Below the pieces are notes generated by a model. It did not search any database. It saw only the letters and a list, made by a program, of their open reading frames with translations, and was not told where the DNA came from. The translations under genes and the position numbers were made by a program. Of a stretch of DNA of 64,000 nt, positions 11,213 to 63,103 are shown piece by piece. Origin of the DNA: a virus; IMG/VR virus record IMGVR_UViG_3300027730_000821, positions 1 to 64,000 of that record. The stretch is one strand, 5' to 3'. The number at the start of each line of letters is the position of its first letter. Position 1 is the first letter of the stretch.

Positions 11213-13489
11213 TTGCAATCGTCACCTGAAATTGAGAATATCATTGAACGTGCCATTGAGGCAGCAAAGCAGCGCCGACATGAGTATTGTACGGTAGAGC
11301 ATCTGCTTTGGTCGTTGATTTCTCATCCTCCGTTCAAGAAGTGCTTGAACAGCTTTGGAATAGAAACCGATCTCATGATTCAAGAAGTCGAAGCATATAT
11401 TAACGGTCTTCATGCTATCGAGTCCAAGAACCCCGACTGTCAGCCGAAGCGCACTAATACACTTGAGCGTGTGATGAATCGTTCAGTCACTCAGGTGCTG
11501 TTTACAGGTCGTCGCCAGGTGATGACGATTGATCTGTATATGAGTATCATTCATGAGGGCAACAGTCATTCTCATTATTTCCTACTTAAGTATGGTGTCA
11601 ACAAGGCTGAATTTCTTAATCACTGGCAGCTGAATTACAAGGGTGGTGATTTTGCGGGTGGCATCAGCACTACTCAAGCTGACGAAATTCTTGAAGAATA
11701 CACTATCAATCTCACTGAACTTGCTCGTCAAGGAAAGCTTGAGCCTGTTATCGGCCGTGCTAAGGAAATTGACGACATCATCAATGTTCTCGCAAAGCGT
11801 TTCAAGTCTAACGTACTGATGGTCGGTGACCCGGGCGTTGGTAAAACTGCAATCGCAGAAGGTATCGCTAACGCAATCATCGCAGATGAAATTCCTGATT
11901 TCTTGTCGGGGTATGAGTTGTATTCTTTGGAAGTAGGTTCGCTGCTAGCCGGTTCTCGCTATCGCGGTGACTTCGAAGAAAAAGTCAAGAACGTAATCGA
12001 AGCATTGACTATCAAGAAGAAAGCAATCCTCTTCATTGATGAAGCGCACACCATGCAAGGTGCAGGTAATGCAGGTACTGGTGGCGGAACAGACTTCGCT
12101 AACATGCTTAAGCCAGCCATCACTAAGGGTCATCTTAAGGTCATCGCTTCTACGACTTGGGAAGAATTCTACGAATCTTTCGAAAAGGATCGTGCATTGA
12201 TGCGTCGATTCTACAGGGTCACTATTGACGAACCTTCTCGTGATTCTACCGTTCGTATTCTTAGCGGTCTCTCCACTCGCCTCAATGAATTCCATGAAGT
12301 TAACATCACGGAAGAAGCAATCGAAGCCGCAGTTGATAGTGCTGATCGTTATATTCACGACCGCAAGAACCCTGACAAGTCGATTGACTTGCTTGATGCG
12401 GCTTGTGCAAAACAACGTGTTCTTGAAAACAAGGGCGCAGAGATCACTAAGGCATTGATCCACGAGCAAGTAGAGAAGTTCACCGGGGTGCCTGCTGACA
12501 AGTTGAGCGGTGATAACTTTGATCGTATCAACAATCTCGAATTGAACGTGAAGAATAAGCTCTATGGTCAGGATGAGACTGTGGATAAGGTTCTTGAGCG
12601 TGTATACGTCTCGTTTGCGGGAATCGGTAACGACAAGAAGCCGATTGCGAGTTTCTTGTTCTTGGGCCCGACGGGCACGGGTAAAACAGAATTGGCAAAG
12701 CTGCTGTCCAAGAATTTGGATATGCCCCTTCTCAAGTATGACATGTCGGAGTACGGCGAGAAGCACAGCGTAAGCAGCTTGATTGGTCCTCCCCCGGGTT
12801 ACGTGGGCTTTAGTGATTCGCAAGTACAAGGTGGACGCTTAATCTCAGACCTGAGCAAGAACCCGCACTCTATCCTACTGTTTGACGAAGTTGAAAAGGC
12901 ACACCCTGACATCTTCAACATCTTCCTTCAGATGCTAGACGAAGGTCGTGTTACTGGTTCGAATGGTAAGGAAGTGTCAATGAAGAACTCTATCATCATT
13001 CTGACTTCTAATCTGGGGTCTGCTGACAATGAGCGTAATAGCATCGGCTTCGGCTCGCTAGAGAAGACAGGTGAAGATGACAAGGCTCTCAAGCAGTTCT
13101 TCAAGCCTGAATTCCGTAATCGTCTTGACATGGTTTGCAAGTTCAACAAGCTGGACACACTGGCTATCAAGAAGATCGTCATCAAGTTCGTCGAAGAATT
13201 GAAGAAGCCCCTGCTAGAAAAACACGCCATCGCTCTCAATCTTTCTGAGCCGGTAGTTGACTATCTTGCAGAGCAAGGTTATGACAGCAAGATGGGCGCT
13301 CGTCCTCTTGCTCGTAAGATCGATGAATTGATTCGTGTTCCGCTATCAAAGAAGATTCTCTTTGAACGTATCAACAATGCGAACGTCATGGCAGTCATGG
13401 AGAACGGTGAAATCACGTATAACGTAACGCATAAGCAAACAGCAAGGATTGGTGATGACGGTATTATCCAAGTCGAAAGTCAAGGTTAA
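11213..13489 (+). CDS. clpA: ClpA-like AAA+ unfoldase
   Basis: 758 aa with a TTG start; the Shine-Dalgarno aaaagga lies before it. The N-domain has RRHEYCTVEHLLWSL (21-35). D1 Walker A is GDPGVGKT (205-212), D2 Walker A is GPTGTGKT (485-492), and LLFDEVEKAHPD is the D2 Walker B. An IGF tripeptide at 611-613 sits where ClpA/ClpX carry the loop that docks ClpP, so it can probably engage the host ClpP protease. No clpP or clpS gene is seen here. The role would be to redirect host proteolysis, or to remodel proteins, during infection. The end overlaps the next gene. Confidence 0.88.
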   Translation: MQSSPEIENIIERAIEAAKQRRHEYCTVEHLLWSLISHPPFKKCLNSFGIETDLMIQEVEAYINGLHAIESKNPDCQPKRTNTLERVMNRSVTQVLFTGRRQVMTIDLYMSIIHEGNSHSHYFLLKYGVNKAEFLNHWQLNYKGGDFAGGISTTQADEILEEYTINLTELARQGKLEPVIGRAKEIDDIINVLAKRFKSNVLMVGDPGVGKTAIAEGIANAIIADEIPDFLSGYELYSLEVGSLLAGSRYRGDFEEKVKNVIEALTIKKKAILFIDEAHTMQGAGNAGTGGGTDFANMLKPAITKGHLKVIASTTWEEFYESFEKDRALMRRFYRVTIDEPSRDSTVRILSGLSTRLNEFHEVNITEEAIEAAVDSADRYIHDRKNPDKSIDLLDAACAKQRVLENKGAEITKALIHEQVEKFTGVPADKLSGDNFDRINNLELNVKNKLYGQDETVDKVLERVYVSFAGIGNDKKPIASFLFLGPTGTGKTELAKLLSKNLDMPLLKYDMSEYGEKHSVSSLIGPPPGYVGFSDSQVQGGRLISDLSKNPHSILLFDEVEKAHPDIFNIFLQMLDEGRVTGSNGKEVSMKNSIIILTSNLGSADNERNSIGFGSLEKTGEDDKALKQFFKPEFRNRLDMVCKFNKLDTLAIKKIVIKFVEELKKPLLEKHAIALNLSEPVVDYLAEQGYDSKMGARPLARKIDELIRVPLSKKILFERINNANVMAVMENGEITYNVTHKQTARIGDDGIIQVESQG

Positions 13490-26237: not shown

Positions 26238-26843
26238 TTAGAAAATAATAATCCAATCTTTAATTGAATCTAACTTTTTGCGAAACAGACAGCGCACTTT
26301 CTTAATGTTGATTCCGTACGCAAGTGAAAATTCACCGGGGGTAAGGGTGACTTCTTCACCTGTTCCTGTATTTCTAAAATGATACTGTGTGTGGTTATAT
26401 CTGGGATTATTTTTACCCACCTTACTTCTTTTAGTAAATTTGTCAGCAAAGTCGGTGTTAAAGGACCGGCCTTTGATCCAACCAATCGGTATAGAATCAT
26501 CTTGTTGTATCTTCTTATTAGTTGCCCCGTCTGTTATCCATATAGTACCGAATGAGGGATTGCGTGGCCCGGCGTTTGATATCTTAGCTAACCTAGATTT
26601 CTCTTTCGGGGACAAACTCATTCTTTTAGACATTATAAGGCAGGCTTTAAGATCACCTTGATTCAAATGGATTTGATAATGCTCTTTAATAGAGACACAT
26701 TGTAAGTTTTCAAGCGAGTTATTATTATGGTTACCGTCAATGTGGTGTATTTCGTAACTTCTATCCTCTTCATCAAAAGGAATAGGTCCAAAATGATTCT
26801 CATAAATTAAGCGATGGTACTGAGTACCACAATAAATACACAT
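26238..26843 (-). CDS. HNH homing endonuclease
   Basis: 201 aa. The N-terminal CxxC (MCIYCGTQYHRL) is followed by YEIHHIDGNHNNNSLENLQC, the HNH core (HH, N, H) as in I-HmuI-like enzymes. A C-terminal DNA-recognition region has FGTIWITDGATNKKIQ and GEFSLAYGINIKKVRCLFRKK, which looks like a helix-turn-helix of NUMOD type. It is antisense to its neighbours, between the small DUF6356-like gene and dps. It has its own late promoter and structured leader (26841-26913), shared with two GIY-YIG genes. Confidence 0.8.
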   Translation of the reverse strand: MCIYCGTQYHRLIYENHFGPIPFDEEDRSYEIHHIDGNHNNNSLENLQCVSIKEHYQIHLNQGDLKACLIMSKRMSLSPKEKSRLAKISNAGPRNPSFGTIWITDGATNKKIQQDDSIPIGWIKGRSFNTDFADKFTKRSKVGKNNPRYNHTQYHFRNTGTGEEVTLTPGEFSLAYGINIKKVRCLFRKKLDSIKDWIIIF

Positions 26844-33124: not shown

Positions 33125-33382
33125 ATGTCTAGAGTATTCAATTCCGAAGCTAAACTAAAACTAACTAACTTAGTCCATGAAGGTATGGGTGTATTACAAG
33201 AGGTTGAGGCATTAAACGAAGGCCTCAATGACACAATTAAGGCAATCGCTGAGGAACTTGAGATCAAGCCAAGCACTCTCAAGAAAGCGATTAAAGTGGC
33301 TCATAAGGCTCGTTTGAATGAGACGAATGACGAAAACGCTGAACTAAATAATATCTTGGAGACTGTTGGTCGTACTGATTAA
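33125..33382 (+). CDS. DsbA-like dsDNA-binding protein
   Basis: 85 aa from the ATG at 33125, which has a strong Shine-Dalgarno (aaggag). The sequence LNEGLNDTIKAIAEELEI then KPSTLKKAIKVAHKARL resembles the DsbA proteins of T4-like cyanophages, where T4 DsbA binds dsDNA and aids late transcription. A start further upstream at 33050 would place the promoter inside the gene and is rejected. The stop overlaps the gp43 ATG by 1 nt. Confidence 0.6.
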   Translation: MSRVFNSEAKLKLTNLVHEGMGVLQEVEALNEGLNDTIKAIAEELEIKPSTLKKAIKVAHKARLNETNDENAELNNILETVGRTD

Positions 33383-35580
33383 TGTATATTGATGCGATAT
33401 TAGATAGCAATTCTGACCGCATTCGTGTAGTTGAGCGGGGCGCCGACGGGAAACGAGCGTATAAAGAATATCATACCAATTATGTTCTTTATTACCAGGA
33501 TCCTAAAGGGAAGCATCGCTCTATCTACGGTGATCCTGTAACTCGCTTCTCTAGCCGTAAACGCAGTGAGTTCGAAAAAGAGCGCAGGATTCATTCTAAT
33601 AAAAAGCTTTTCGAAAGTGATGTCAACGTAATTTTCAGATGTTTGTCTGAAAACTACCTAAGAGCAGAACCTCCAAAGCTTCACACTTGTTTCTTCGATA
33701 TTGAAGTGGACTTTGATCCTGAAAAGGGTTTCAGTCCAACTTCAGATCCATTCAATCCAGTAACAGCGATCAGTTGTTATCTAGATTGGTTGGATCAGCT
33801 TGTTACGTTAGTTATTCCACCGAAACACATGACGGATGAGACTGCCCAAGAACTGATCAAAGATTTCCCGAACACTTTCCTATATCGCAGTGAGATAGAA
33901 ATGTTCGAGACATTTTTTGATCTGATCGAAGATGCAGATGTATTGACTGGTTGGAACTCAGAAGGATACGACATTCCATATATGGTAAATCGTATTACTC
34001 GTGTGATGTCTAAAGATGATACTCGCAAGTTCTGCCTCATGGGACAACTACCAAAGACTCGCACATACGAGAGATTCGGTAAAGAAGAACAGACCTATGA
34101 TCTAGTTGGTAGAATTCATATGGACTATCTTCAATTGTATAAGAAGTATAACTACGAGTCACGACATAGTTATTCACTCGATGCTATCGGTGAATATGAA
34201 CTAGGCGAGCGCAAGACTCAGTATGAGGGCACACTGGATCAATTGTACAACCGAGACTTCAAAACTTTCGTAGAATACAACAGGCAAGACACTATGCTTG
34301 TATTCAAGATCCACAACAAACTCAAATTTCTTGATCTTGCGAATGCACTAGCGCATGAAAACACAGTACTGCTACCAACTGTTATGGGTTCGGTGGCCAT
34401 GATTGAAATGGCAGTTTATAATGAAGCACATGAACGAGGATTTATCGTCCCTGACAAGAAGCGTAGGGATTCGTTTAGTGACGGACAACAAGCAGCAGGT
34501 GCATATGTTGCTGTACCGAAGACGGGGATTCACGAATACGTCGGCGCAGTTGATATCAACTCACTCTACCCCTCTGCCATCAGAGCCCTTAACATGGCTC
34601 CAGAAACTATTATCGGGCAGGTTCGTCAAACACTTACTGATCAGTATATGCATGAAAAGAGTATTGCTCTTGCTAAAGAAAAGCGTAAGAAAAAGAACGG
34701 CGACGATGCAGAAGCTGTGATTGGTGCTATTCTTTGGGAAAACCTATTCGGTTCATTAGAATATACCGCTATCATGAACCAAGAACGCGGCACTATGCTC
34801 ACCATCGATTATGAAGATGGTCGATCAAAAGAGATGTCTGCTGCTGAAATTTGGAAGATGATTTTTGATAGTCACAAGCCTTATATGCTATCGGCGAACG
34901 GGACCATCTTTACCTATGAGAAAGAAGGCATTATTCCCGGATTGCTCTCACGTTGGTATTCTGAACGTAAAATACTTCAGAAGCAAGCTAAAGAAGCGTA
35001 TGGCACTGATATGTACGAATATTATGACAAGCGACAGCTTGTTCGTAAGATTTTGCTTAACTCTGCATACGGCGCGCTTCTCAATGAGCATTGTAGGTTC
35101 TATGATAAGCGTATCGGGCAGTCAGTTACGTTGTCCGGTAGACAGATCGTAAAGCACATGATGAGTCAGATCAACGAGACTATCACCGAAAAATATCAAC
35201 ATGACGGTGATGCAATCGTATACGGTGACAGTGTTACTGGTGATTCTATTATTAGAACAACCGATGGTGATAAAACAATAGCGCAACTTTTTGATGAGTG
35301 CATTGAGCATTCAGTTGTGGGTGAAAAAGAGTATGGAGTATGGAATGATTCCACTGTGCTTGGATTTAATTCACATGATATGCAACCTACTGGGGCAAAA
35401 ATTAGTTACGTTATGCGACATAAAACTAGGAAAAAACTTTATAAAATCACAACAGAGAACGGGAAACAGGTAACTGTCACTGAAGATCATAGTATAATGG
35501 TCGATCGGGATGGATTCTTAGTAGAATGTAAACCTAATGAAATTCTTGAAACTGATGGAATTATTACTTTTGTGCCATAA
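33382..35580 (+). CDS. 43: DNA polymerase gp43, N-terminal part fused to N-intein
   Basis: 732 aa. Family B polymerase: Exo I FFDIEVD (D106, E108), Exo II GWNSEGYDIPY, Exo III EYNRQDTMLV, motif A VDINSLYPSAI (D391), motif B KILLNSAYGALLNE, and the first half of motif C, YGD (614-616). Residues 617-732 are not polymerase but an N-intein. The missing TDS of motif C is restored by the C-terminal gene at 36552, joined by protein trans-splicing at YGD/TDS. N-extein 616 plus C-extein 285 gives about 901 aa, almost the length of T4 gp43 (898). Without splicing the polymerase would be inactive. Confidence 0.92.
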   Translation: MYIDAILDSNSDRIRVVERGADGKRAYKEYHTNYVLYYQDPKGKHRSIYGDPVTRFSSRKRSEFEKERRIHSNKKLFESDVNVIFRCLSENYLRAEPPKLHTCFFDIEVDFDPEKGFSPTSDPFNPVTAISCYLDWLDQLVTLVIPPKHMTDETAQELIKDFPNTFLYRSEIEMFETFFDLIEDADVLTGWNSEGYDIPYMVNRITRVMSKDDTRKFCLMGQLPKTRTYERFGKEEQTYDLVGRIHMDYLQLYKKYNYESRHSYSLDAIGEYELGERKTQYEGTLDQLYNRDFKTFVEYNRQDTMLVFKIHNKLKFLDLANALAHENTVLLPTVMGSVAMIEMAVYNEAHERGFIVPDKKRRDSFSDGQQAAGAYVAVPKTGIHEYVGAVDINSLYPSAIRALNMAPETIIGQVRQTLTDQYMHEKSIALAKEKRKKKNGDDAEAVIGAILWENLFGSLEYTAIMNQERGTMLTIDYEDGRSKEMSAAEIWKMIFDSHKPYMLSANGTIFTYEKEGIIPGLLSRWYSERKILQKQAKEAYGTDMYEYYDKRQLVRKILLNSAYGALLNEHCRFYDKRIGQSVTLSGRQIVKHMMSQINETITEKYQHDGDAIVYGDSVTGDSIIRTTDGDKTIAQLFDECIEHSVVGEKEYGVWNDSTVLGFNSHDMQPTGAKISYVMRHKTRKKLYKITTENGKQVTVTEDHSIMVDRDGFLVECKPNEILETDGIITFVP
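35230..35577 (+). other. N-terminal split intein in gp43
   Basis: 116 residues starting with Ser1 in SVTGDSIIRT (block A), then KQVTVTEDHSIMV (block B, TxxH). It ends at TAA 35578-35580. The insertion site is inside polymerase motif C. Confidence 0.85.
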
Positions 35581-35582
35581 CG

Positions 35583-35614
35583 CATAAATATATGCTGATA
35601 GGAGTATCAGCATA
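35583..35614 (+). promoter_or_regulatory. Late promoter plus Shine-Dalgarno-sequestering hairpin
   Basis: CATAAATA (35583-35590). A perfect 10-bp stem TATGCTGATA (35591-35600) / TATCAGCATA (35605-35614) has the loop GGAG and its 3' arm reaches the A of the ATG. Late initiation near 35596 cuts the 5' arm in half. Confidence 0.8.
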
Positions 35615-36576
35615 TGATAAAGTGTTTAGAATGTGGAATGGAAACTAGTAGACTACAGTGGACTCATTTTAAGTATAACTGCACAGGTAAATTTTCTAAT
35701 TCCAAAGAATACAAGTTGGCATATCCTCAAGCCGTGTTAGTATCAGCGGATGTTGCCGCAAAAACGGCTATTACAAAAGAGAGATTGATTGAAAAGTATG
35801 GGATAGAAGAGGGTACGATTCGATGGAACCAATACAAAGTTAAACAAGCGGATTCTAATTCATTTGAGTACAAACGTAAAAAACACGGATGGACAGTTGA
35901 ACAGTATAATGAGTATAATTCGTCTAGGGCACAGACCTTAGAAAAAATGATTGCCCGTCATGGGGAAAAGTTAGGTACTACTAAGTGGCTAGCGTATTGT
36001 GAACGACAAGCATACACCAATAGTAAAACCTATTTCGTTAACAAGTATGGAACTGAAGAGGGTACGTCTAGATTTCTACAGTTAAATATCGAAAAAGGTA
36101 GCTCATTTAATCCGCAATTAGTAGCAACTAAATTGGGAATATCCCTTGATGAAGCGGTCACACTAATTTTAAACCGGGTAGTATATCCCGGTAATATTTG
36201 GGGTTCCAACATAGAAAAAGAATTTACGACCATGCTGATTGACAATTATGGATCATTAGAGTATACTACGTTTACTAGACCCTACGGAAGATGGTCTTCT
36301 TTCTTAGGAACATATGTGATATACGATATAAAACACAAAGACTGTATAATTGAATTTAACGGTGATTACTGGCATGCGAATCCGTCTTTATATAAAAATG
36401 ATGCAGTTATTCGGGGTCGTACTGCATTAGAGATTCAAGAATATGATAGTAAAAAATTGAAGACAGCAACTGATCTTGGGTTTCGCACGTATACGGTGTG
36501 GGAATCTGAATTTAAATTAGATAAACAAAATACAATTAATAAGGTGAAAGCATGGATGCAGAGTGGACAAAAATAA
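35614..36576 (+). CDS. Homing endonuclease of split-intein cassette (Vsr-like/EDxHD type)
   Basis: 320 aa, free-standing between the two intein halves. The zinc-like start MIKCLECGMETSRLQWTHF is followed by repeats of the type KYGIEEGTIRWNQYKVKQ and KYGTEEGTSRFLQLN, likely DNA-reading. The C-terminal nuclease region has DIKHKDCIIEFNGDYWHANP and FRTYTVWESEF, as in the Vsr-like I-Bth0305I family described with fractured genes. It would cut intein-less gp43 alleles at the insertion site and spread the cassette. It has its own late promoter with a hairpin over the ribosome site. Its end overlaps the C-terminal gp43 gene by 25 nt. Confidence 0.82.
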   Translation: MIKCLECGMETSRLQWTHFKYNCTGKFSNSKEYKLAYPQAVLVSADVAAKTAITKERLIEKYGIEEGTIRWNQYKVKQADSNSFEYKRKKHGWTVEQYNEYNSSRAQTLEKMIARHGEKLGTTKWLAYCERQAYTNSKTYFVNKYGTEEGTSRFLQLNIEKGSSFNPQLVATKLGISLDEAVTLILNRVVYPGNIWGSNIEKEFTTMLIDNYGSLEYTTFTRPYGRWSSFLGTYVIYDIKHKDCIIEFNGDYWHANPSLYKNDAVIRGRTALEIQEYDSKKLKTATDLGFRTYTVWESEFKLDKQNTINKVKAWMQSGQK

Positions 36577-36677
36577 AAAAGGTAGAATGTCTTGGTGAAG
36601 TTGATGACTATGTATACGACTTGAGTATTGTAGATAGTGATCCGTTTTTCTTTGCAAATGATATCCTAGTTCATAAC
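36552..36677 (+). other. C-terminal split intein in gp43
   Basis: 42 residues ending HN at 36677, followed by Thr+1. Its small size is typical of phage split inteins such as gp41-1 and NrdJ-1. Confidence 0.85.
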
Positions 36678-37535
36678 ACTGATAGCTGTTATTTCAGTGC
36701 ATATCACGCGATCAAACCACAGATCGATAAGGGTGAGATTGAATGGAACAAGGAAGTATGCATCCAATTATACGATAATATTGCTGATATCGCAAACGAT
36801 AGTTTTCCAGGCTTCATGGAGAAGGCATTTCATTGTCCCCGCAAGAACGGTGAGATCATCAAAGCTGGTCGTGAACTGATCGGGGATCGTACTCTATTCA
36901 TCACAAAGAAGCGTTATGCAATCAATATCTTTGATAAAGAAGGCAAGCGTAAAGATGTGAATGGTAAGATGGGTGAGATCAAGGCTATGGGTCTTGACTT
37001 GAAACGAGCAGATACTCCTAAGTATGTTCAGACGTTCTTGATGGAAGTACTTGAGCAGGTATTGGGTGGCGTTCCTCGCGCCGAAGTTATCACTAAGATC
37101 AGAGAATTCAAGACTTGGCTTTCTGAACAAGATAGTTGGACTAAAGGTTCTCCTAAGTCAGTTAACAATCTTACTAAACATACGATCAAGTATGAGAAGA
37201 CCGGTCAGTGTAGTGTTGGACATGCGAAAGCTGCTATCAATTATAACTACTTGCGTAAGATGAACGGTGACCAGTATAGTCAGAAGATCGTAGATGGTAT
37301 GAAGGTTGTTGTGTGTACTCTCAAATCAAATCCATTAGGGTTGACTTCGATTGCATATCCAACTGATGAGCTTAGGCTACCACAATGGTTCCTTGAACTT
37401 CCTTTTGATGATAATGAAATGGAACGTAAGCTAGTCGATGAGAAAATCGATAACCTATTAGGTGTACTTGACTGGGATATCAGAACAGATACTAACACTA
37501 ACAGTACATTCAGTGATCTGTTCAGTTTCGGTTAA
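36552..37535 (+). CDS. 43: DNA polymerase gp43, C-intein plus C-terminal part
   Basis: 327 aa. Residues 1-42 are a C-intein (VDDYVYDLSIVDSDPFFFAN then DILVHN, blocks F and G, terminal Asn at 42). Residue 43 is Thr, the +1 nucleophile, and starts TDSCYFSAYHA, the second half of polymerase motif C. The rest is palm and thumb: KKRYAINIFDKEGK, DLKRADTPKYVQTFLMEVLE, and a C-terminal DLFSFG tail. A short hydrophobic DLFSFG-type tail is where family B polymerases bind the clamp, here gp45, encoded next. Confidence 0.92.
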   Translation: MDAEWTKIKKVECLGEVDDYVYDLSIVDSDPFFFANDILVHNTDSCYFSAYHAIKPQIDKGEIEWNKEVCIQLYDNIADIANDSFPGFMEKAFHCPRKNGEIIKAGRELIGDRTLFITKKRYAINIFDKEGKRKDVNGKMGEIKAMGLDLKRADTPKYVQTFLMEVLEQVLGGVPRAEVITKIREFKTWLSEQDSWTKGSPKSVNNLTKHTIKYEKTGQCSVGHAKAAINYNYLRKMNGDQYSQKIVDGMKVVVCTLKSNPLGLTSIAYPTDELRLPQWFLELPFDDNEMERKLVDEKIDNLLGVLDWDIRTDTNTNSTFSDLFSFG

Positions 37536-44172: not shown

Positions 44173-44853
44173 ATGTCTTTTAATAAAAATAAATGTGACC
44201 CCGAATTGGGTCGTCTCGTCCATGAACATCTTGTAAAGATGGGGGTTGAAACTCCCACTATCGAAAACAATCTCAGCAGAACCGACAAAATTGAGATCAT
44301 TGAACGCAAGTTTAAGGATATCATGGAAACCTTAGGGCTTGACCTAAGTGATGATAGTCTTATTGAAACTCCCAAGCGTGTTGCCAAAATGTATGTAGGT
44401 GAAATCTTTTGGGGCCTCGACTACGAAGCATTTCCCAAGTGTACTACAGTTGACAACAAGATGAACTACGATGAAATGGTAGTAGAGCGTAACATTATTG
44501 TTATGAGTAACTGTGAACATCATTTTGTCCAAATTGACGGTCTTGCTACTGTTGCGTATGTACCCAACGAAAAGGTTCTTGGTCTATCCAAGATCAATCG
44601 TATTGTTGAATATTTCAGCAAGCGGCCACAGATTCAGGAGCGTTTGACTGAACAGGTATTTCACACTCTTTGCTACATTCTTGAAACCGAAGATGTTGCA
44701 GTCATGATTGATGCCCAGCACTATTGTGTTAAGTCGCGCGGTGTAGAAGATACAGGGTCAAGCACAGTAACGTGTAAGCTGGGCGGCGGATTCAAGTCTG
44801 ACCCTGCTGCTCGTGCAGAGTTTCTTAGTATCGCTCGCATGAGTAAGTGCTAA
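44173..44853 (+). CDS. folE: GTP cyclohydrolase I
   Basis: 226 aa, close to E. coli FolE. VIVMSNCEHHFVQIDGLATV-type zinc site (Cys, His, His), then GLSKINRIVEYFSKRPQIQE and LTEQVFHTL, and a second Cys in DAQHYCVKSRGVED. It opens GTP to 7,8-dihydroneopterin triphosphate, the first step to 7-deazaguanine. QueD and QueE follow within 4 kb and DpdA lies upstream. Regulation could involve the structured leader. Confidence 0.92.
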   Translation: MSFNKNKCDPELGRLVHEHLVKMGVETPTIENNLSRTDKIEIIERKFKDIMETLGLDLSDDSLIETPKRVAKMYVGEIFWGLDYEAFPKCTTVDNKMNYDEMVVERNIIVMSNCEHHFVQIDGLATVAYVPNEKVLGLSKINRIVEYFSKRPQIQERLTEQVFHTLCYILETEDVAVMIDAQHYCVKSRGVEDTGSSTVTCKLGGGFKSDPAARAEFLSIARMSKC

Positions 44854-44870
44854 CGGAATTTATCATATCA

Positions 44871-45083
44871 ATGGCCCAGCTAGACCTTCACGGTGTTAGA
44901 CACCAGGATGTTGATCTGTTAGTGGAGAACTTCGTTCTAATGAACCAGAATGAGTTCCCACTAACTATCATCTGCGGTAACAGCATTAAAATGATTAAGC
45001 TGGTTGAGAATACGATAAATAGGATTGGATGCGATGCAACTATGATCAGACATGGATTCATAGTTATTCAGCGTATCAAATAA
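44871..45083 (+). CDS. Small Smr-domain-like protein
   Basis: 70 aa from the ATG at 44871; a GTG at 44847 overlapping folE is the alternative. MAQLDLHGVRHQDVDLLVEN is the LDLHG motif of Smr domains, with LTIICGNSIKMIKLVENTI following. Smr domains nick branched DNA or cut RNA. This copy is short and its GxG part is altered (ICGNS). Activity is uncertain. Confidence 0.6.
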   Translation: MAQLDLHGVRHQDVDLLVENFVLMNQNEFPLTIICGNSIKMIKLVENTINRIGCDATMIRHGFIVIQRIK

Positions 45084-45085
45084 AC

Positions 45086-45126
45086 AGCGGTCTTGGCGTC
45101 ATTCCCGCTTGACAAATTCTGCCGCC
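45086..45126 (+). ncRNA. H-type pseudoknot, copy 1
   Basis: S1 AGCGG (45086-45090)/CCGCT (45105-45109); L1 TCTT; S2 GGCG (45095-45098)/CGCC (45123-45126); L2 TCATTC; 13-nt L3 ending ATTCTGC. Copy 2 at 45306 has identical L1, L2 and L3 length with changed but still paired stems. Confidence 0.7.
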
Positions 45127-45137
45127 TATGTTATGCT
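45109..45137 (+). promoter_or_regulatory. Sigma70-like promoter overlapping pseudoknot copy 1
   Basis: TTGACA (45109-45114), 17-nt spacer, TATGCT (45132-45137). It starts within the pseudoknot, so a transcript from it would lack the first pseudoknot but include copy 2. Confidence 0.6.
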
Positions 45138-45155
45138 AATATAGGAGATTAAAAT

Positions 45156-45304
45156 ATGGCAAATCAACCAGGCAACTATTATCAAATATGCTCGGAGAAG
45201 GATATCAGGATCATGGTCTTGATCTAAATCAGATTTATAATGCAGAAGGCTTTTGTGAAGTTGAGGATATCCTCAACTACATCAATCGTCGGTATGCTTA
45301 TTAA
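45156..45304 (+). pseudogene. Small gene with apparent frameshift
   Basis: The ATG at 45156, with Shine-Dalgarno taggag, encodes MANQPGNYYQI and then stops at 45227. A second frame from 45188 encodes MLGEGYQDHGLDLNQIYNAE then GFCEVEDILNYINRRYAY to 45304. Removing two bases (at) near 45186 joins them into one smooth 48-residue protein. It is either a recent frameshift, a sequence error or a recoded gene. The product is unknown. Confidence 0.5.
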
Positions 45305-45305
45305 C

Positions 45306-45350
45306 AGTGGTCTTTGACACTCATTCCCACTATAAACATTCTGCGTGTCA
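45306..45350 (+). ncRNA. H-type pseudoknot, copy 2, in queD leader
   Basis: S1 AGTGG (45306-45310)/CCACT (45327-45331); L1 TCTT; S2 TGACAC (45315-45320)/GTGTCA (45345-45350); L2 TCATTC; 13-nt L3 ending ATTCTGC. The queD Shine-Dalgarno AAAGGAG (45354-45360) begins 4 nt after S2, so pseudoknot folding could block ribosome entry. The topology is like preQ1-I riboswitches, but loop sequences differ. Confidence 0.75.
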
Positions 45351-45367
45351 TCTAAAGGAGAAAAAAG

Positions 45368-45847
45368 ATGACAAAAAAATATGTATCAACTAAAGAATAT
45401 TCACACCTTGCGCCTCTGGCGTATCGGCAATGGCGAGCGGATAGTCACTGTCGTTTAATACACGGCTATGCATTGTCTTTCAAATTTGAATTTGAATGCG
45501 ATGACCTTGACGCCCGAAATTGGTGTTTTGATTACGGTGGGCTCCGGCCACTTAAGGATTTCCTAGAAGATAATTTTGACCACGTATTACTTTTAGCCCA
45601 AGATGATCCATACTATGATACCATTAAGCAACTAGGAGAATTAGGATTGGCAAAGATAATTGAGGTTGAAAAGACCGGATGCGAGGGACTTGCAGATTAC
45701 CTGTATGAATATGTGAATACTATTTTCCTTCCATCCTGCGGCGAGGCAGAGGCTGCAAGAGTTTGGTGTGCGAAAGTAGAAGTGAGAGAAACCCCATCAA
45801 ACATGGCATACAGGCAAGGCCATAGAGAAGACGGCGAGTTTCTATAA
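45368..45847 (+). CDS. queD: QueD, 6-carboxytetrahydropterin synthase
   Basis: 159 aa. RADSHCRLIHGYALSFKFEF carries the Cys and the HGY zinc motif. DLDARNWCFDYGGLRPLKDF, LEDNFDHVLLLAQDD and ARVWCAKVEVRETPSNMAY match the PTPS/QueD fold, with the catalytic His and Glu. It converts dihydroneopterin triphosphate to 6-carboxytetrahydropterin, the second step after FolE. It is preceded by the second of two tandem pseudoknots. An antisense GIY-YIG gene follows. Confidence 0.9.
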   Translation: MTKKYVSTKEYSHLAPLAYRQWRADSHCRLIHGYALSFKFEFECDDLDARNWCFDYGGLRPLKDFLEDNFDHVLLLAQDDPYYDTIKQLGELGLAKIIEVEKTGCEGLADYLYEYVNTIFLPSCGEAEAARVWCAKVEVRETPSNMAYRQGHREDGEFL

Positions 45848-60416: not shown

Positions 60417-61241
60417 ATGTCGGCATCGTGGATTAACGCACTCAACAGTAGCGATTCTCGCATTCACAAAGAACACATTATCAGTCAGGCGCTAACAGCA
60501 GCATTACTTGGCAACACAACTGCTAAGTTTTTTCTTAATATGCTGAAGCTTTGTTATGATCCATACATCGTGTTTGGGGTAAGACAGATACCAGAAACTT
60601 TTGGAATTACTGATGCAGAAAACCCTTGGGACGAGTTTGGCGATCTTACTGTAAAGCTCGGCACTCGTGAACTCACCGGACATGATGCACGTGACGCTAT
60701 CCAAACAATGGCAGACCGATTCGACAGTGACGAGTGGAATACTTTTCTTGCTCCCGTTTTGCGGCGCGACATACGCTGTGGCATATCGTCAACCACAATC
60801 AACAAAGTTTGCAAAAAGACAGAGTACGAAATTTCAGTTTTTGGGTGTCAACTGGCAACCAATTCTGAAGGCAGACCCGAGATGACCGGTATCAAACGTC
60901 TCGAACCTAAACTTGATGGCTGTTTAAGTTCAGATTGGGTAGTTGAGTTTGAAGATGGCAGTAAAGTCACAATCAAGGAAGTAGTTGACAACAAATTAGC
61001 AGGTAAGGTCAAATCATACAATATGATTACCGGTAAGGTCGAATTTAACGAAATTACCGGCTGGGCGGTGGACGGAATTGATGACTCGGTCGATGATTAT
61101 GAATGGTACGAGATAACATTAGAGAACGGTAAAACTTTGCCACCGCTAACGGGTAATCATTTGGTCTATCTTCCTAAGTTAAAATGCTATCGTAGAGTAG
61201 ACTTGCTAACTGACAATGATGAATTATTAGAGCACATTTAA
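60417..61241 (+). CDS. 30: ATP-dependent DNA ligase, N-terminal part fused to N-intein
   Basis: 274 aa. Residues 1-168 are the N-terminal helical domain of a T4 gp30-like ligase (WNTFLAPVLRRDIRCGISST, TINKVCKKTEYEI) ending EPKLDG, the first half of motif I, with the adenylated Lys165. Residue 169 is Cys1 of an N-intein (CLSSDWVVEFEDGSKVTIKE, TGNHLVYLPKLKCYRRVDLL). Motif I KxDGxR is completed as KLDG/CR by the C-terminal gene at 62141. The full ligase would be about 449 aa. It is encoded as a fractured gene, like gp43. Confidence 0.9.
   Translation: MSASWINALNSSDSRIHKEHIISQALTAALLGNTTAKFFLNMLKLCYDPYIVFGVRQIPETFGITDAENPWDEFGDLTVKLGTRELTGHDARDAIQTMADRFDSDEWNTFLAPVLRRDIRCGISSTTINKVCKKTEYEISVFGCQLATNSEGRPEMTGIKRLEPKLDGCLSSDWVVEFEDGSKVTIKEVVDNKLAGKVKSYNMITGKVEFNEITGWAVDGIDDSVDDYEWYEITLENGKTLPPLTGNHLVYLPKLKCYRRVDLLTDNDELLEHI
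60921..61238 (+). other. N-terminal split intein in DNA ligase
   Basis: 106 residues from Cys1 (codon 60921-60923) to the stop. PLTGNHLVY carries the block B TxxH-like motif (TGNH). Insertion is between Gly and Cys of the ligase motif I. Confidence 0.85.
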
Positions 61242-61260
61242 CCATCTAATTTCTGCTACA

Positions 61261-61294
61261 GGCATAAATAACTATTATAGGAGATTATTATGCC
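61261..61294 (+). promoter_or_regulatory. Late promoter inside a start-codon-sequestering hairpin
   Basis: CATAAATA (61263-61270). GGCATAA (61261-61267) pairs with TTATGCC (61288-61294), extended to 10 bp with one bulged A. The loop holds AGGAG (61279-61283) and the ATG (61290) is in the 3' arm. Late initiation near 61276 removes the 5' arm. Confidence 0.7.
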
Positions 61295-62144
61295 GGTATG
61301 TCATATATGTGGAAAAATAGTGAGGAACATTGACTATCACCTAATAGGTGAACAGTATAAGGATAAGATCAGTGATATGATACTAGCAGGATATTCTATC
61401 TTGTACCTATCCAAGAATTCGTTGACCTTATTCGGAGAGAAAATATCATATGACATGATATCTACAACCTGCAAGCACCACGGTATTAAAATACCCAGTT
61501 TAAAAGATACTGCAAACAGTAGAATAACACGAGATTTGTATAAGTCTACTGTAGAAAAAACATATGGTCATGGAATAACCAATGTATCTCAATCCAAACT
61601 AATCAAAGAAAAGAAAAATAATACAAACTTAGATAGGTATGGAGTAATAAATCCGTTTCAACGAGAAGAAGTAAAGCAAAAATCAAAAGAAACCCTATAT
61701 AAAAAATACGGAGTTCTTAACCCAGTTGAACTGCCATAGTATACCAAAAACAATGGGAGATTCTCTAAACCTCACAAAAAAATATCAGATTTCCTACATA
61801 CTCTGACTATAGAACACGACAATGACAAAGCTGGTCTATTTAGAAAATTTAATGACGAGTTAAAAAGAACGTATTCACCTATCCCTGATATTTTTATTCC
61901 TGATAAAAATGTCGTAATAGAAATATTCGGTGATAGATGGCACATGAATCCAAGAATATACCACGAGTCTGATGTTGTCGTGTTTTTTGACGGTCCGTGT
62001 ACGGCCGCTGAGGTCTGGTTAGGTGATGAAATACGAAATAACCATATCCGCTATTTTGGGGTTGACATAATTGTAATTTGGGAATATGATATCAAATATC
62101 ACTTTGAAGACATCAAACTAATGCTAACTGAAAGATTGACATGA
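61290..62144 (+). pseudogene. Homing endonuclease of ligase split-intein cassette, interrupted by one amber codon
   Basis: The reading frame runs from ATG 61290 (MPVCHICGKIVRNIDYHLIG) to TAG at 61738-61740 after KKYGVLNPVELP, then continues in the same frame YTKNNGRFSKPHKKISDFLH to 62144. The second part holds the nuclease core IPDIFIPDKNVVIEIFGDRW then HMNPRIYHE and RYFGVDIIVIWEYDI, as in Vsr-like endonucleases. The stop removes the active site. Other genes here also end in TAG, so amber is not reassigned. It is likely a recent nonsense mutation. Start control is the same hairpin type as in the gp43 cassette. Confidence 0.8.
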
Positions 62145-62257
62145 CCACCCTAAAAATCAAAAGTATTAAAAAACTACCTCCAACCAAAATGGCACGGTAT
62201 GACATACAAGTAAAGAATACCGAAAACTTTTTTGCAAATGGGGTGCTAGTCCACAAC
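62141..62257 (+). other. C-terminal split intein in DNA ligase
   Basis: 39 residues ending HN at 62257, with Cys+1 next. It has the same length class as the gp43 C-intein. Confidence 0.85.
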
Positions 62258-63103
62258 TGCCGTGTTCTACTAGTAGTGCAAGTTCTTGACAGCGGGGCAC
62301 ATGTCACATGCTATAGCCGTAATGGTAAGGTATTTGAAAACTTTAACCACATCGAAAAACAAGTACTTGATAACTTACCTGAAATGATTGCTGCTAGGCA
62401 TGAGGTAGGAGGCCTTGGGGCAGACCTAACTCTTGGATTTGTGCTTGATGGTGAAGTTGTGGGTAATAGTTTTCAAGAACTGATGCGCCAGGCTCGTCGT
62501 AAAGAAAATGTTGCGAGCGAGGACAGTGTGTTTCACGTATTTGACATTATTCCTATTCTTGATTTTAGCAGGGGATACTGGAACGCATCCCTGACCAAAC
62601 GTCTCGCATTGCTTGACGCAATGAAGTCTGCCATTGACAAGATGTCCAACCTAGAATTACTTCCACATCTACTTGTTGATCTTACTACACTCGAGGGCAG
62701 AAATCAGCTTGATCGTTATGCAAAAGATATGGTTACTGCTGGATTTGAGGGCATCATGATCAAGGATCTTGCGACCTCGTATGAATGTAAGCGTAACACC
62801 GCCTGGATGAAGTACAAGCCCGTGCATGATTACGACCTCACTGTAATCGGTGTGGAATCCGGTACCGGAAAGAACAAGGACAGAATGGGAGCATTGGTCT
62901 GTGAAGGAATGGACGACGGAAAACACATTGTAGTCAATGTGGGTAGCGGGTTTACTGATGCTGAACGACAAGAATATTGGGATAACCGAAACGATCTGAT
63001 CGGGCGATCGGTGGTAATTATGGCAGATGCGATAACTCTTAATCAAAACGGCACTTATAGTCTACGTTTTCCTAGATTTAAATCATTTCGATATGACAAG
63101 TGA
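62141..63103 (+). CDS. 30: ATP-dependent DNA ligase, C-intein plus C-terminal part
   Basis: 320 aa. Residues 1-39 are a C-intein (ARYDIQVKNTENFFANGVLV then HN). Residue 40 is Cys+1 and begins CRVLLVVQVLD, completing ligase motif I. Further ligase motifs: FVLDGEVVGNSFQELM (III), TAGFEGIMIKDL (IV) and AWMKYKPVHDYD (V), then the OB domain GALVCEGMDDGKHIVVNVGS and SLRFPRFKSFRYDK (motif VI-like). T4 gp30 seals nicks in replication and recombination. The gene overlaps the endonuclease remnant by 4 nt. Confidence 0.9.
   Translation: MTTLKIKSIKKLPPTKMARYDIQVKNTENFFANGVLVHNCRVLLVVQVLDSGAHVTCYSRNGKVFENFNHIEKQVLDNLPEMIAARHEVGGLGADLTLGFVLDGEVVGNSFQELMRQARRKENVASEDSVFHVFDIIPILDFSRGYWNASLTKRLALLDAMKSAIDKMSNLELLPHLLVDLTTLEGRNQLDRYAKDMVTAGFEGIMIKDLATSYECKRNTAWMKYKPVHDYDLTVIGVESGTGKNKDRMGALVCEGMDDGKHIVVNVGSGFTDAERQEYWDNRNDLIGRSVVIMADAITLNQNGTYSLRFPRFKSFRYDK

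What the first reader, a model, noticed from the sequence alone, without database searches (positions are those of the whole stretch)
60417..63103. DNA ligase fractured at the adenylation motif by a second split-intein cassette
The break lies inside KxDGxR (KLDG/CR). The N-intein starts with Cys1 and the C-intein ends His-Asn before Cys+1. This is an independent cassette from that in gp43: different nucleophile, different sequence. Two core replication enzymes in one phage therefore depend on trans-splicing, which is unusual.
Basis: partly seen in the sequence, partly recalled or inferred. Interest (0 to 1): 0.75.

Follow-up and report, generated by a model that had tools for sequence, protein, structure and literature searches.

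The report
Phage DNA ligase split by intein
An uncultured phage makes its DNA ligase as two proteins that a split intein should stitch together through the enzyme's active-site motif; the element is a known kind of selfish insertion with its own DNA-cutting gene (here broken by a stop codon), and a nearly identical phage lacks it.

Summary
At 60417-63103 an ATP-dependent DNA ligase is encoded as two ORFs, broken exactly between KLDG and the next residue of motif KxDGxR. The N-intein (106 aa) starts with Cys1. The C-intein (39 aa) ends His-Asn before Cys+1. Two other viral contigs carry the same cassette at the same site with intact endonucleases. A sister phage (ligase 95-98% identical, synonymous divergence about 0.12) has an exact empty site (GGC|GTG CGT) and no intein anywhere. 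All 79 intact ligase relatives have Val where the split copies have Cys+1. The gp43 cassette is independent: Ser1/Thr+1, 22% identity over the N-intein, and the sister gp43 is intact. Both endonuclease genes sit behind a CATAAATA box and an RNA hairpin holding the Shine-Dalgarno sequence, as in the late control of I-TevI and mobE. This is a 'fractured gene': known architecture and chemistry, in an apparently unreported host gene and site. Splicing is strongly inferred, not shown.

The parts
60417..60920 (+). DNA ligase N-extein (168 aa), ending in catalytic motif I ...EPKLDG (adenylated Lys = residue 165)
   Evidence: phrog_114 E 4.8e-20; PDB 6rar ligase E 4.1e-29
60921..61238 (+). N-intein, 106 aa, Cys1, block-B-like LTGNHLVY
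   Evidence: 80% and 74% identical in L081 and L083
61242..61289 (+). Endonuclease leader: CATAAATA late-promoter-like box at 61263-61270, then a hairpin enclosing the Shine-Dalgarno (AGGAG) and start codon
   Evidence: the box is kept in L081 and L083
61290..62143 (+). Homing endonuclease gene (284 codons; Vsr/EDxHD-like nuclease domain at the C-terminal end), interrupted by amber
   Evidence: Foldseek to I-Bth0305I 3r3p and Vsr 1vsr, probability 1.00
61737..61739 (+). In-frame TAG (codon 150; TGG in L081), between the N-terminal/DUF7487 part and the nuclease domain
62141..62257 (+). C-intein, 39 aa, ending LVHN; its start codon overlaps the endonuclease stop (ATGA)
   Evidence: TIGR01443 E 8.4e-9
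62258..63100 (+). DNA ligase C-extein (281 aa), starting Cys+1-Arg; rest of the adenylation domain and OB domain
   Evidence: PF01068 E 2.4e-12, PF14743 E 1.5e-11; phrog_114
33382..35577 (+). Comparison cassette: gp43 (PolB) N-part plus N-intein starting Ser1 at 35230 (YGD|SVTGDS)
   Evidence: PF14890 E 2.1e-9
35614..36576 (+). Comparison cassette: gp43 endonuclease gene, intact, with GDxWHxNP motif; leader with CATAAATA (35583-35590) and a 12-bp hairpin
36552..37535 (+). Comparison cassette: gp43 C-intein (ends LVHN at 36677) plus C-part starting Thr+1 (TDS)

Best explanation
This is a mobile 'fractured gene' cassette. A homing endonuclease with a Vsr/EDxHD-type nuclease domain sits between the two halves of a Cys1/Cys+1 class 1 split intein, inserted at the motif I codon of the phage DNA ligase gene. 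Seen directly: the two ORFs, the intein ends, the exact empty site in a sister phage, and the amber codon. Inferred: the N-ligase-IntN and IntC-ligase-C polypeptides are made separately, the intein halves associate, and ordinary trans-splicing (Cys1 thioester, Cys+1 branched intermediate, Asn cyclisation) yields a 449-aa ligase with KLDGCR in place of KLDGVR. The catalytic Lys lies on one half and the rest of the active site on the other, so ligase activity should depend on splicing or at least on tight association. The endonuclease once spread the cassette by cutting intein-free ligase alleles. In this phage the nuclease domain is lost to a TAG at codon 150, so the copy should splice but not home.
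For: Intein and ligase profiles. Joined intein matches the NrdJ-1 split intein, E 7.6e-9. Empty site exact to the base except the +1 codon: L002 GGC|GTG CGT, window GGC|...|TGC CGT. 79 of 79 intact ligases have Val there, the split copies Cys. Same cassette and site in L081 and L083, saturated at synonymous sites while inteins stay 68-80% and endonucleases 54-79% identical, so the products are under purifying selection. Nuclease domain resembles I-Bth0305I and Vsr and keeps E211, D215, H218. TAG in the window and in near-identical contig 3300027970_000904, TGG in L081. Sister genome has no intein.
Against: Splicing was not observed. The N-intein scores below the curated cut-offs of single models, as short split halves often do. 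The endonuclease model has low confidence (pLDDT 59.7) and its PDB matches have E above 0.001. The TAG is seen in only two near-identical assemblies, which may come from the same reads.
Confidence: 0.9

Rival explanations
1. The halves do not splice but associate as a two-subunit ligase, as the split NrdA of Aeh1 and split gp43 of phage 25 work without splicing; the intein remnants serve only as docking pieces.
For: Split phage enzymes that work without splicing are known (PMC2988022). No splicing data exist here.
Against: All splicing residues (Cys1, block-B His, HN, Cys+1) are invariant in three diverged copies, and the +1 Val is replaced by Cys only in split copies. Docking would not need either.
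Confidence: 0.06
2. The locus is a decaying pseudogene: the ligase was destroyed by the insertion and the phage relies on another ligase.
For: The endonuclease is already broken by a stop codon.
Against: Both ligase halves are 95-98% identical to the sister's intact ligase with dN/dS 0.19 and 0.09, and the intein is conserved.
Confidence: 0.03
3. The endonuclease is still made in full by amber suppression or recoding (TAG read as an amino acid), so the cassette still homes.
For: A 134-codon open frame with conserved catalytic residues follows the TAG.
Against: No tRNA gene in the window. TAG ends 11 of 77 longest-ORF genes, and this is the only one of them with an open frame of 60 or more codons beyond it. 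L081 has TGG, one base away.
Confidence: 0.08
4. The phage uses the split to time its ligase: the hairpin and late-promoter-like box before the endonuclease make the C-half, and so active ligase, late.
For: CATAAATA plus a hairpin in both cassettes; the C-half lies downstream on the same strand and overlaps the endonuclease stop.
Against: The same control is known for T4-type endonucleases alone, where it keeps the endonuclease late (PMC2988022). The C-half has its own weak SD-like sequence and could be translated from earlier transcripts.
Confidence: 0.1

Closest known systems
Fractured genes (Dassa et al. 2009, NAR 37:2560): split inteins with a free-standing endonuclease gene between the halves, mostly in phage, several with Vsr-related endonucleases
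   Same: Order N-half, endonuclease, C-half; split at the canonical endonuclease position (about 100 + 40 aa); Vsr/EDxHD-like nuclease; control elements before the endonuclease. The original paper was not readable here; its content is cited from memory and from papers that cite it.
   Different: Host gene is an ATP-dependent DNA ligase, site inside motif I; the endonuclease is amber-truncated in this copy
NrdJ-1 split intein (PDB 8ubs)
   Same: Best solved match to the joined intein, E 7.6e-9; split phage intein
   Different: Sits in class II ribonucleotide reductase; sequence clearly diverged
I-Bth0305I / EDxHD homing endonucleases and Vsr
   Same: Predicted fold of the C-terminal domain, probability 1.00; E..GDxWH motif
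   Different: Different N-terminal DNA-binding part (DUF7487-like); no significant sequence match in the PDB
Pseudomonas phage MIJ3 and Aeromonas phage Aes123 split PolB inteins
   Same: Like the gp43 cassette of this phage: cysteine-less nucleophiles, in PolB, with an endonuclease gene between the halves in MIJ3
   Different: Not the ligase; MIJ3's endonuclease is called HNH
Halobacterial ATP-dependent DNA ligase intein (PMC4071816)
   Same: Intein in an ATP-dependent DNA ligase
   Different: Archaeal, found in one genome; not described there as split; its site was not compared here
I-TevI / mobE leader hairpin with late promoter (PMC2988022)
   Same: RBS held in an RNA hairpin just downstream of a late-promoter-type box
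   Different: Here before a split-intein endonuclease; promoter use not shown

Membership tests
Class 1 split intein | Cys or Ser at intein residue 1 | tested here: met
   Cys1 in all three copies
Class 1 split intein | Block B TxxH-type motif | tested here: met
   T77-G-N-H80 invariant
Class 1 split intein | C-terminal His-Asn and Cys/Ser/Thr at +1 | tested here: met
   LVHN|C in window, L081 and L083
Class 1 split intein | Two halves on separate polypeptides, flanking halves of one host protein | tested here: met
   intact single-ORF homologues in 79 loci
Class 1 split intein | Protein trans-splicing activity | not testable with these tools
   Needs expression
Fractured gene | Free-standing endonuclease gene between the split-intein halves | tested here: met
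   61290-62143; amber in this copy
Fractured gene | Intein-free allele at the same site | tested here: met
   L002
EDxHD (Vsr-like) homing endonuclease | Vsr-like fold with conserved Glu, Asp, His | tested here: met
   Foldseek 3r3p, 1vsr, 1cw0 probability 0.99-1.00, at E 7e-3 to 4e-2 and low pLDDT; E211, D215, H218
EDxHD (Vsr-like) homing endonuclease | Sequence match to a curated EDxHD or Vsr family | tested here: not met
   None in Pfam, NCBIfam or the PDB by sequence; PHROGs name part of it homing endonuclease
Active homing endonuclease | Intact reading frame | tested here: not met
   TAG at codon 150; intact in L081 and L083

The most novel reading that the evidence does not exclude
Two unrelated split-intein cassettes, both absent from a sister phage of 96-99% protein identity in these genes, place DNA polymerase and DNA ligase of one phage behind the same kind of late-promoter/hairpin leader, so that the endonuclease control elements also delay or coordinate assembly of two replication enzymes.
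Probability: 0.07. Interest if true: 0.65.

Novelty: new member of a known kind. Interest (0 to 1): 0.42.

Why it matters
It adds the replication ligase, at its adenylation motif, to the phage enzymes broken by split inteins. It gives an unusually clean natural pair: one phage with two cassettes and a sister with none, differing at the ligase site only by the cassette and the +1 codon. It supplies two apparently orthogonal natural split inteins (Cys1/Cys+1 and Ser1/Thr+1) from one genome, of possible use in protein engineering, and a snapshot of a cassette that has lost its endonuclease but kept its intein, as the homing cycle predicts.

Tried and rejected
Copy of the gp43 cassette: rejected. 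Genetic recoding of TAG: no support. Assembly artefact: rejected by L081, L083 and L002. Annotated phages hold only distant intein relatives at 31-33% identity. A genome-wide excess of YATAAATA was tested and not found (8 seen, 8.3 expected); only its place in the two cassette leaders stands out. L020's odd ligase is a short local deletion, not another intein. The Dassa 2009 paper could not be read, so whether ligase was among its enzyme types is not verified; PMC4071816 (2014) called ligase a gene not previously reported to harbour inteins.

Full report
Observation. The window is bases 1-64000 of a 72,534-base IMG/VR virus record with no near match among annotated phages. At 60417-61241 and 62141-63103 two ORFs on the + strand encode the two parts of one ATP-dependent DNA ligase (phrog_114, E 4.8e-20 and 1.9e-64; N-part similar to PDB ligase 6rar). 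The break lies between Gly and the next residue of KLDG|xR. The N-part continues as a 106-aa N-intein beginning with Cys. The C-part is preceded by a 39-aa C-intein ending LVHN, followed by Cys+1-Arg (profiles). Joined, the intein matches the NrdJ-1 split intein, E 7.6e-9.

Between the halves, 61290-62143 reads as one 284-codon gene with an in-frame TAG at codon 150. Two relatives, L081 (79%) and L083 (56%), have the gene intact at the same place; L081 has TGG at that codon. The predicted fold of the C-terminal part matches the EDxHD homing endonuclease I-Bth0305I (3r3p) and Vsr (1vsr, 1cw0) with Foldseek probability 0.99-1.00, though with E 7e-3 to 4e-2 on a low-confidence model. E211, D215 and H218 are kept. 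The TAG falls before this domain and no good restart codon precedes E211, so the nuclease should be absent. TAG ends 11 of 77 longest-ORF genes and no tRNA gene was found in the window, so recoding is unlikely.

Empty site and history. L002, from an 81,899-base virus record, has a ligase whose N- and C-parts are 95% and 98% identical (dS about 0.12). Its site reads GGC|GTG CGT where the window has GGC|cassette|TGC CGT, with 98-100% identity in the 60-base bins next to the insertion. Besides the cassette, the only change at the junction is the +1 codon, Val to Cys. All 79 intact ligase relatives have Val there. The sister has no intein and its gp43 is intact. The three cassettes are saturated at synonymous sites while inteins stay 68-80% and endonucleases 54-79% identical at protein level: the element is old and constrained, but entered this phage lineage recently, or was lost precisely by the sister. 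Its G+C (34-39%) is below that of the ligase halves (44-45%).

The gp43 cassette. gp43 is broken at YGD|TDS with Ser1 and Thr+1; 80 intact relatives read YGDTDS. Its endonuclease shares only 30% over 67 aa with the ligase one, its N-intein 22% over 94 aa, its C-intein 39% over 36 aa. These are independent elements. Similar split PolB inteins are known from phage MIJ3 (PMC6892783) and Aeromonas phages (PMC11923092).

Shared control leaders. Both leaders between N-half and endonuclease hold CATAAATA (61263, 35583), with TATAAATA or CATAAATA in the L081 and L083 leaders. From the shuffled density, about 0.003 and 0.002 such boxes would be expected in the two leaders, a post-hoc figure. Each leader folds so that the Shine-Dalgarno lies in a hairpin: z -2.0 (window ligase), -2.4 (L081), -3.2 (L083), -4.6 (gp43); transcripts started just after the box lose most of the structure. 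Among 50 start regions of the window the two endonucleases rank 1 and 3 by stability. This is the arrangement described for I-TevI, segB and mobE (PMC2988022). Promoter use is inferred.

Mechanism. Most likely ordinary class 1 trans-splicing restores a 449-aa ligase with KLDGCR. The adenylated Lys is on the N-half and the rest of the adenylation domain on the C-half, so activity should need joining. Shown: sequence, conservation, empty site, amber. Inferred: association, splicing, past homing.

Verdict. A real, well-preserved fractured-gene cassette in a phage DNA ligase: a known kind in an apparently unreported host gene and site. An ATP-dependent ligase intein is known from one halobacterium (PMC4071816). 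The clean sister comparison, the lost endonuclease and the twin cassettes raise interest moderately; the class is not new.

Noticed in passing
35581-35613 and 61242-61289: Both cassette leaders carry CATAAATA and a hairpin holding the Shine-Dalgarno sequence before the endonuclease gene, as in I-TevI/mobE control.
   Followed up: partly
33382-37535: gp43 (PolB) is split at YGD|TDS by a split intein with Ser1/Thr+1 and an intact endonuclease gene whose ORF overlaps the C-half start.
   Followed up: partly
26238-26843 (-): A further free-standing HNH endonuclease gene, antisense to its neighbours (phrog_12324, E 3.6e-23).
   Followed up: no
44173-45847: GTP cyclohydrolase and QueD-like genes side by side, suggesting queuosine-type base modification.
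   Followed up: no
11213-13489: Phage-encoded ATP-dependent protease (phrog_4871, E 5e-231).
   Followed up: no
L020:3428-4847: A ligase relative with a short deletion just before KRLEPKLDG that breaks the frame; looks local or an assembly error.
   Followed up: yes
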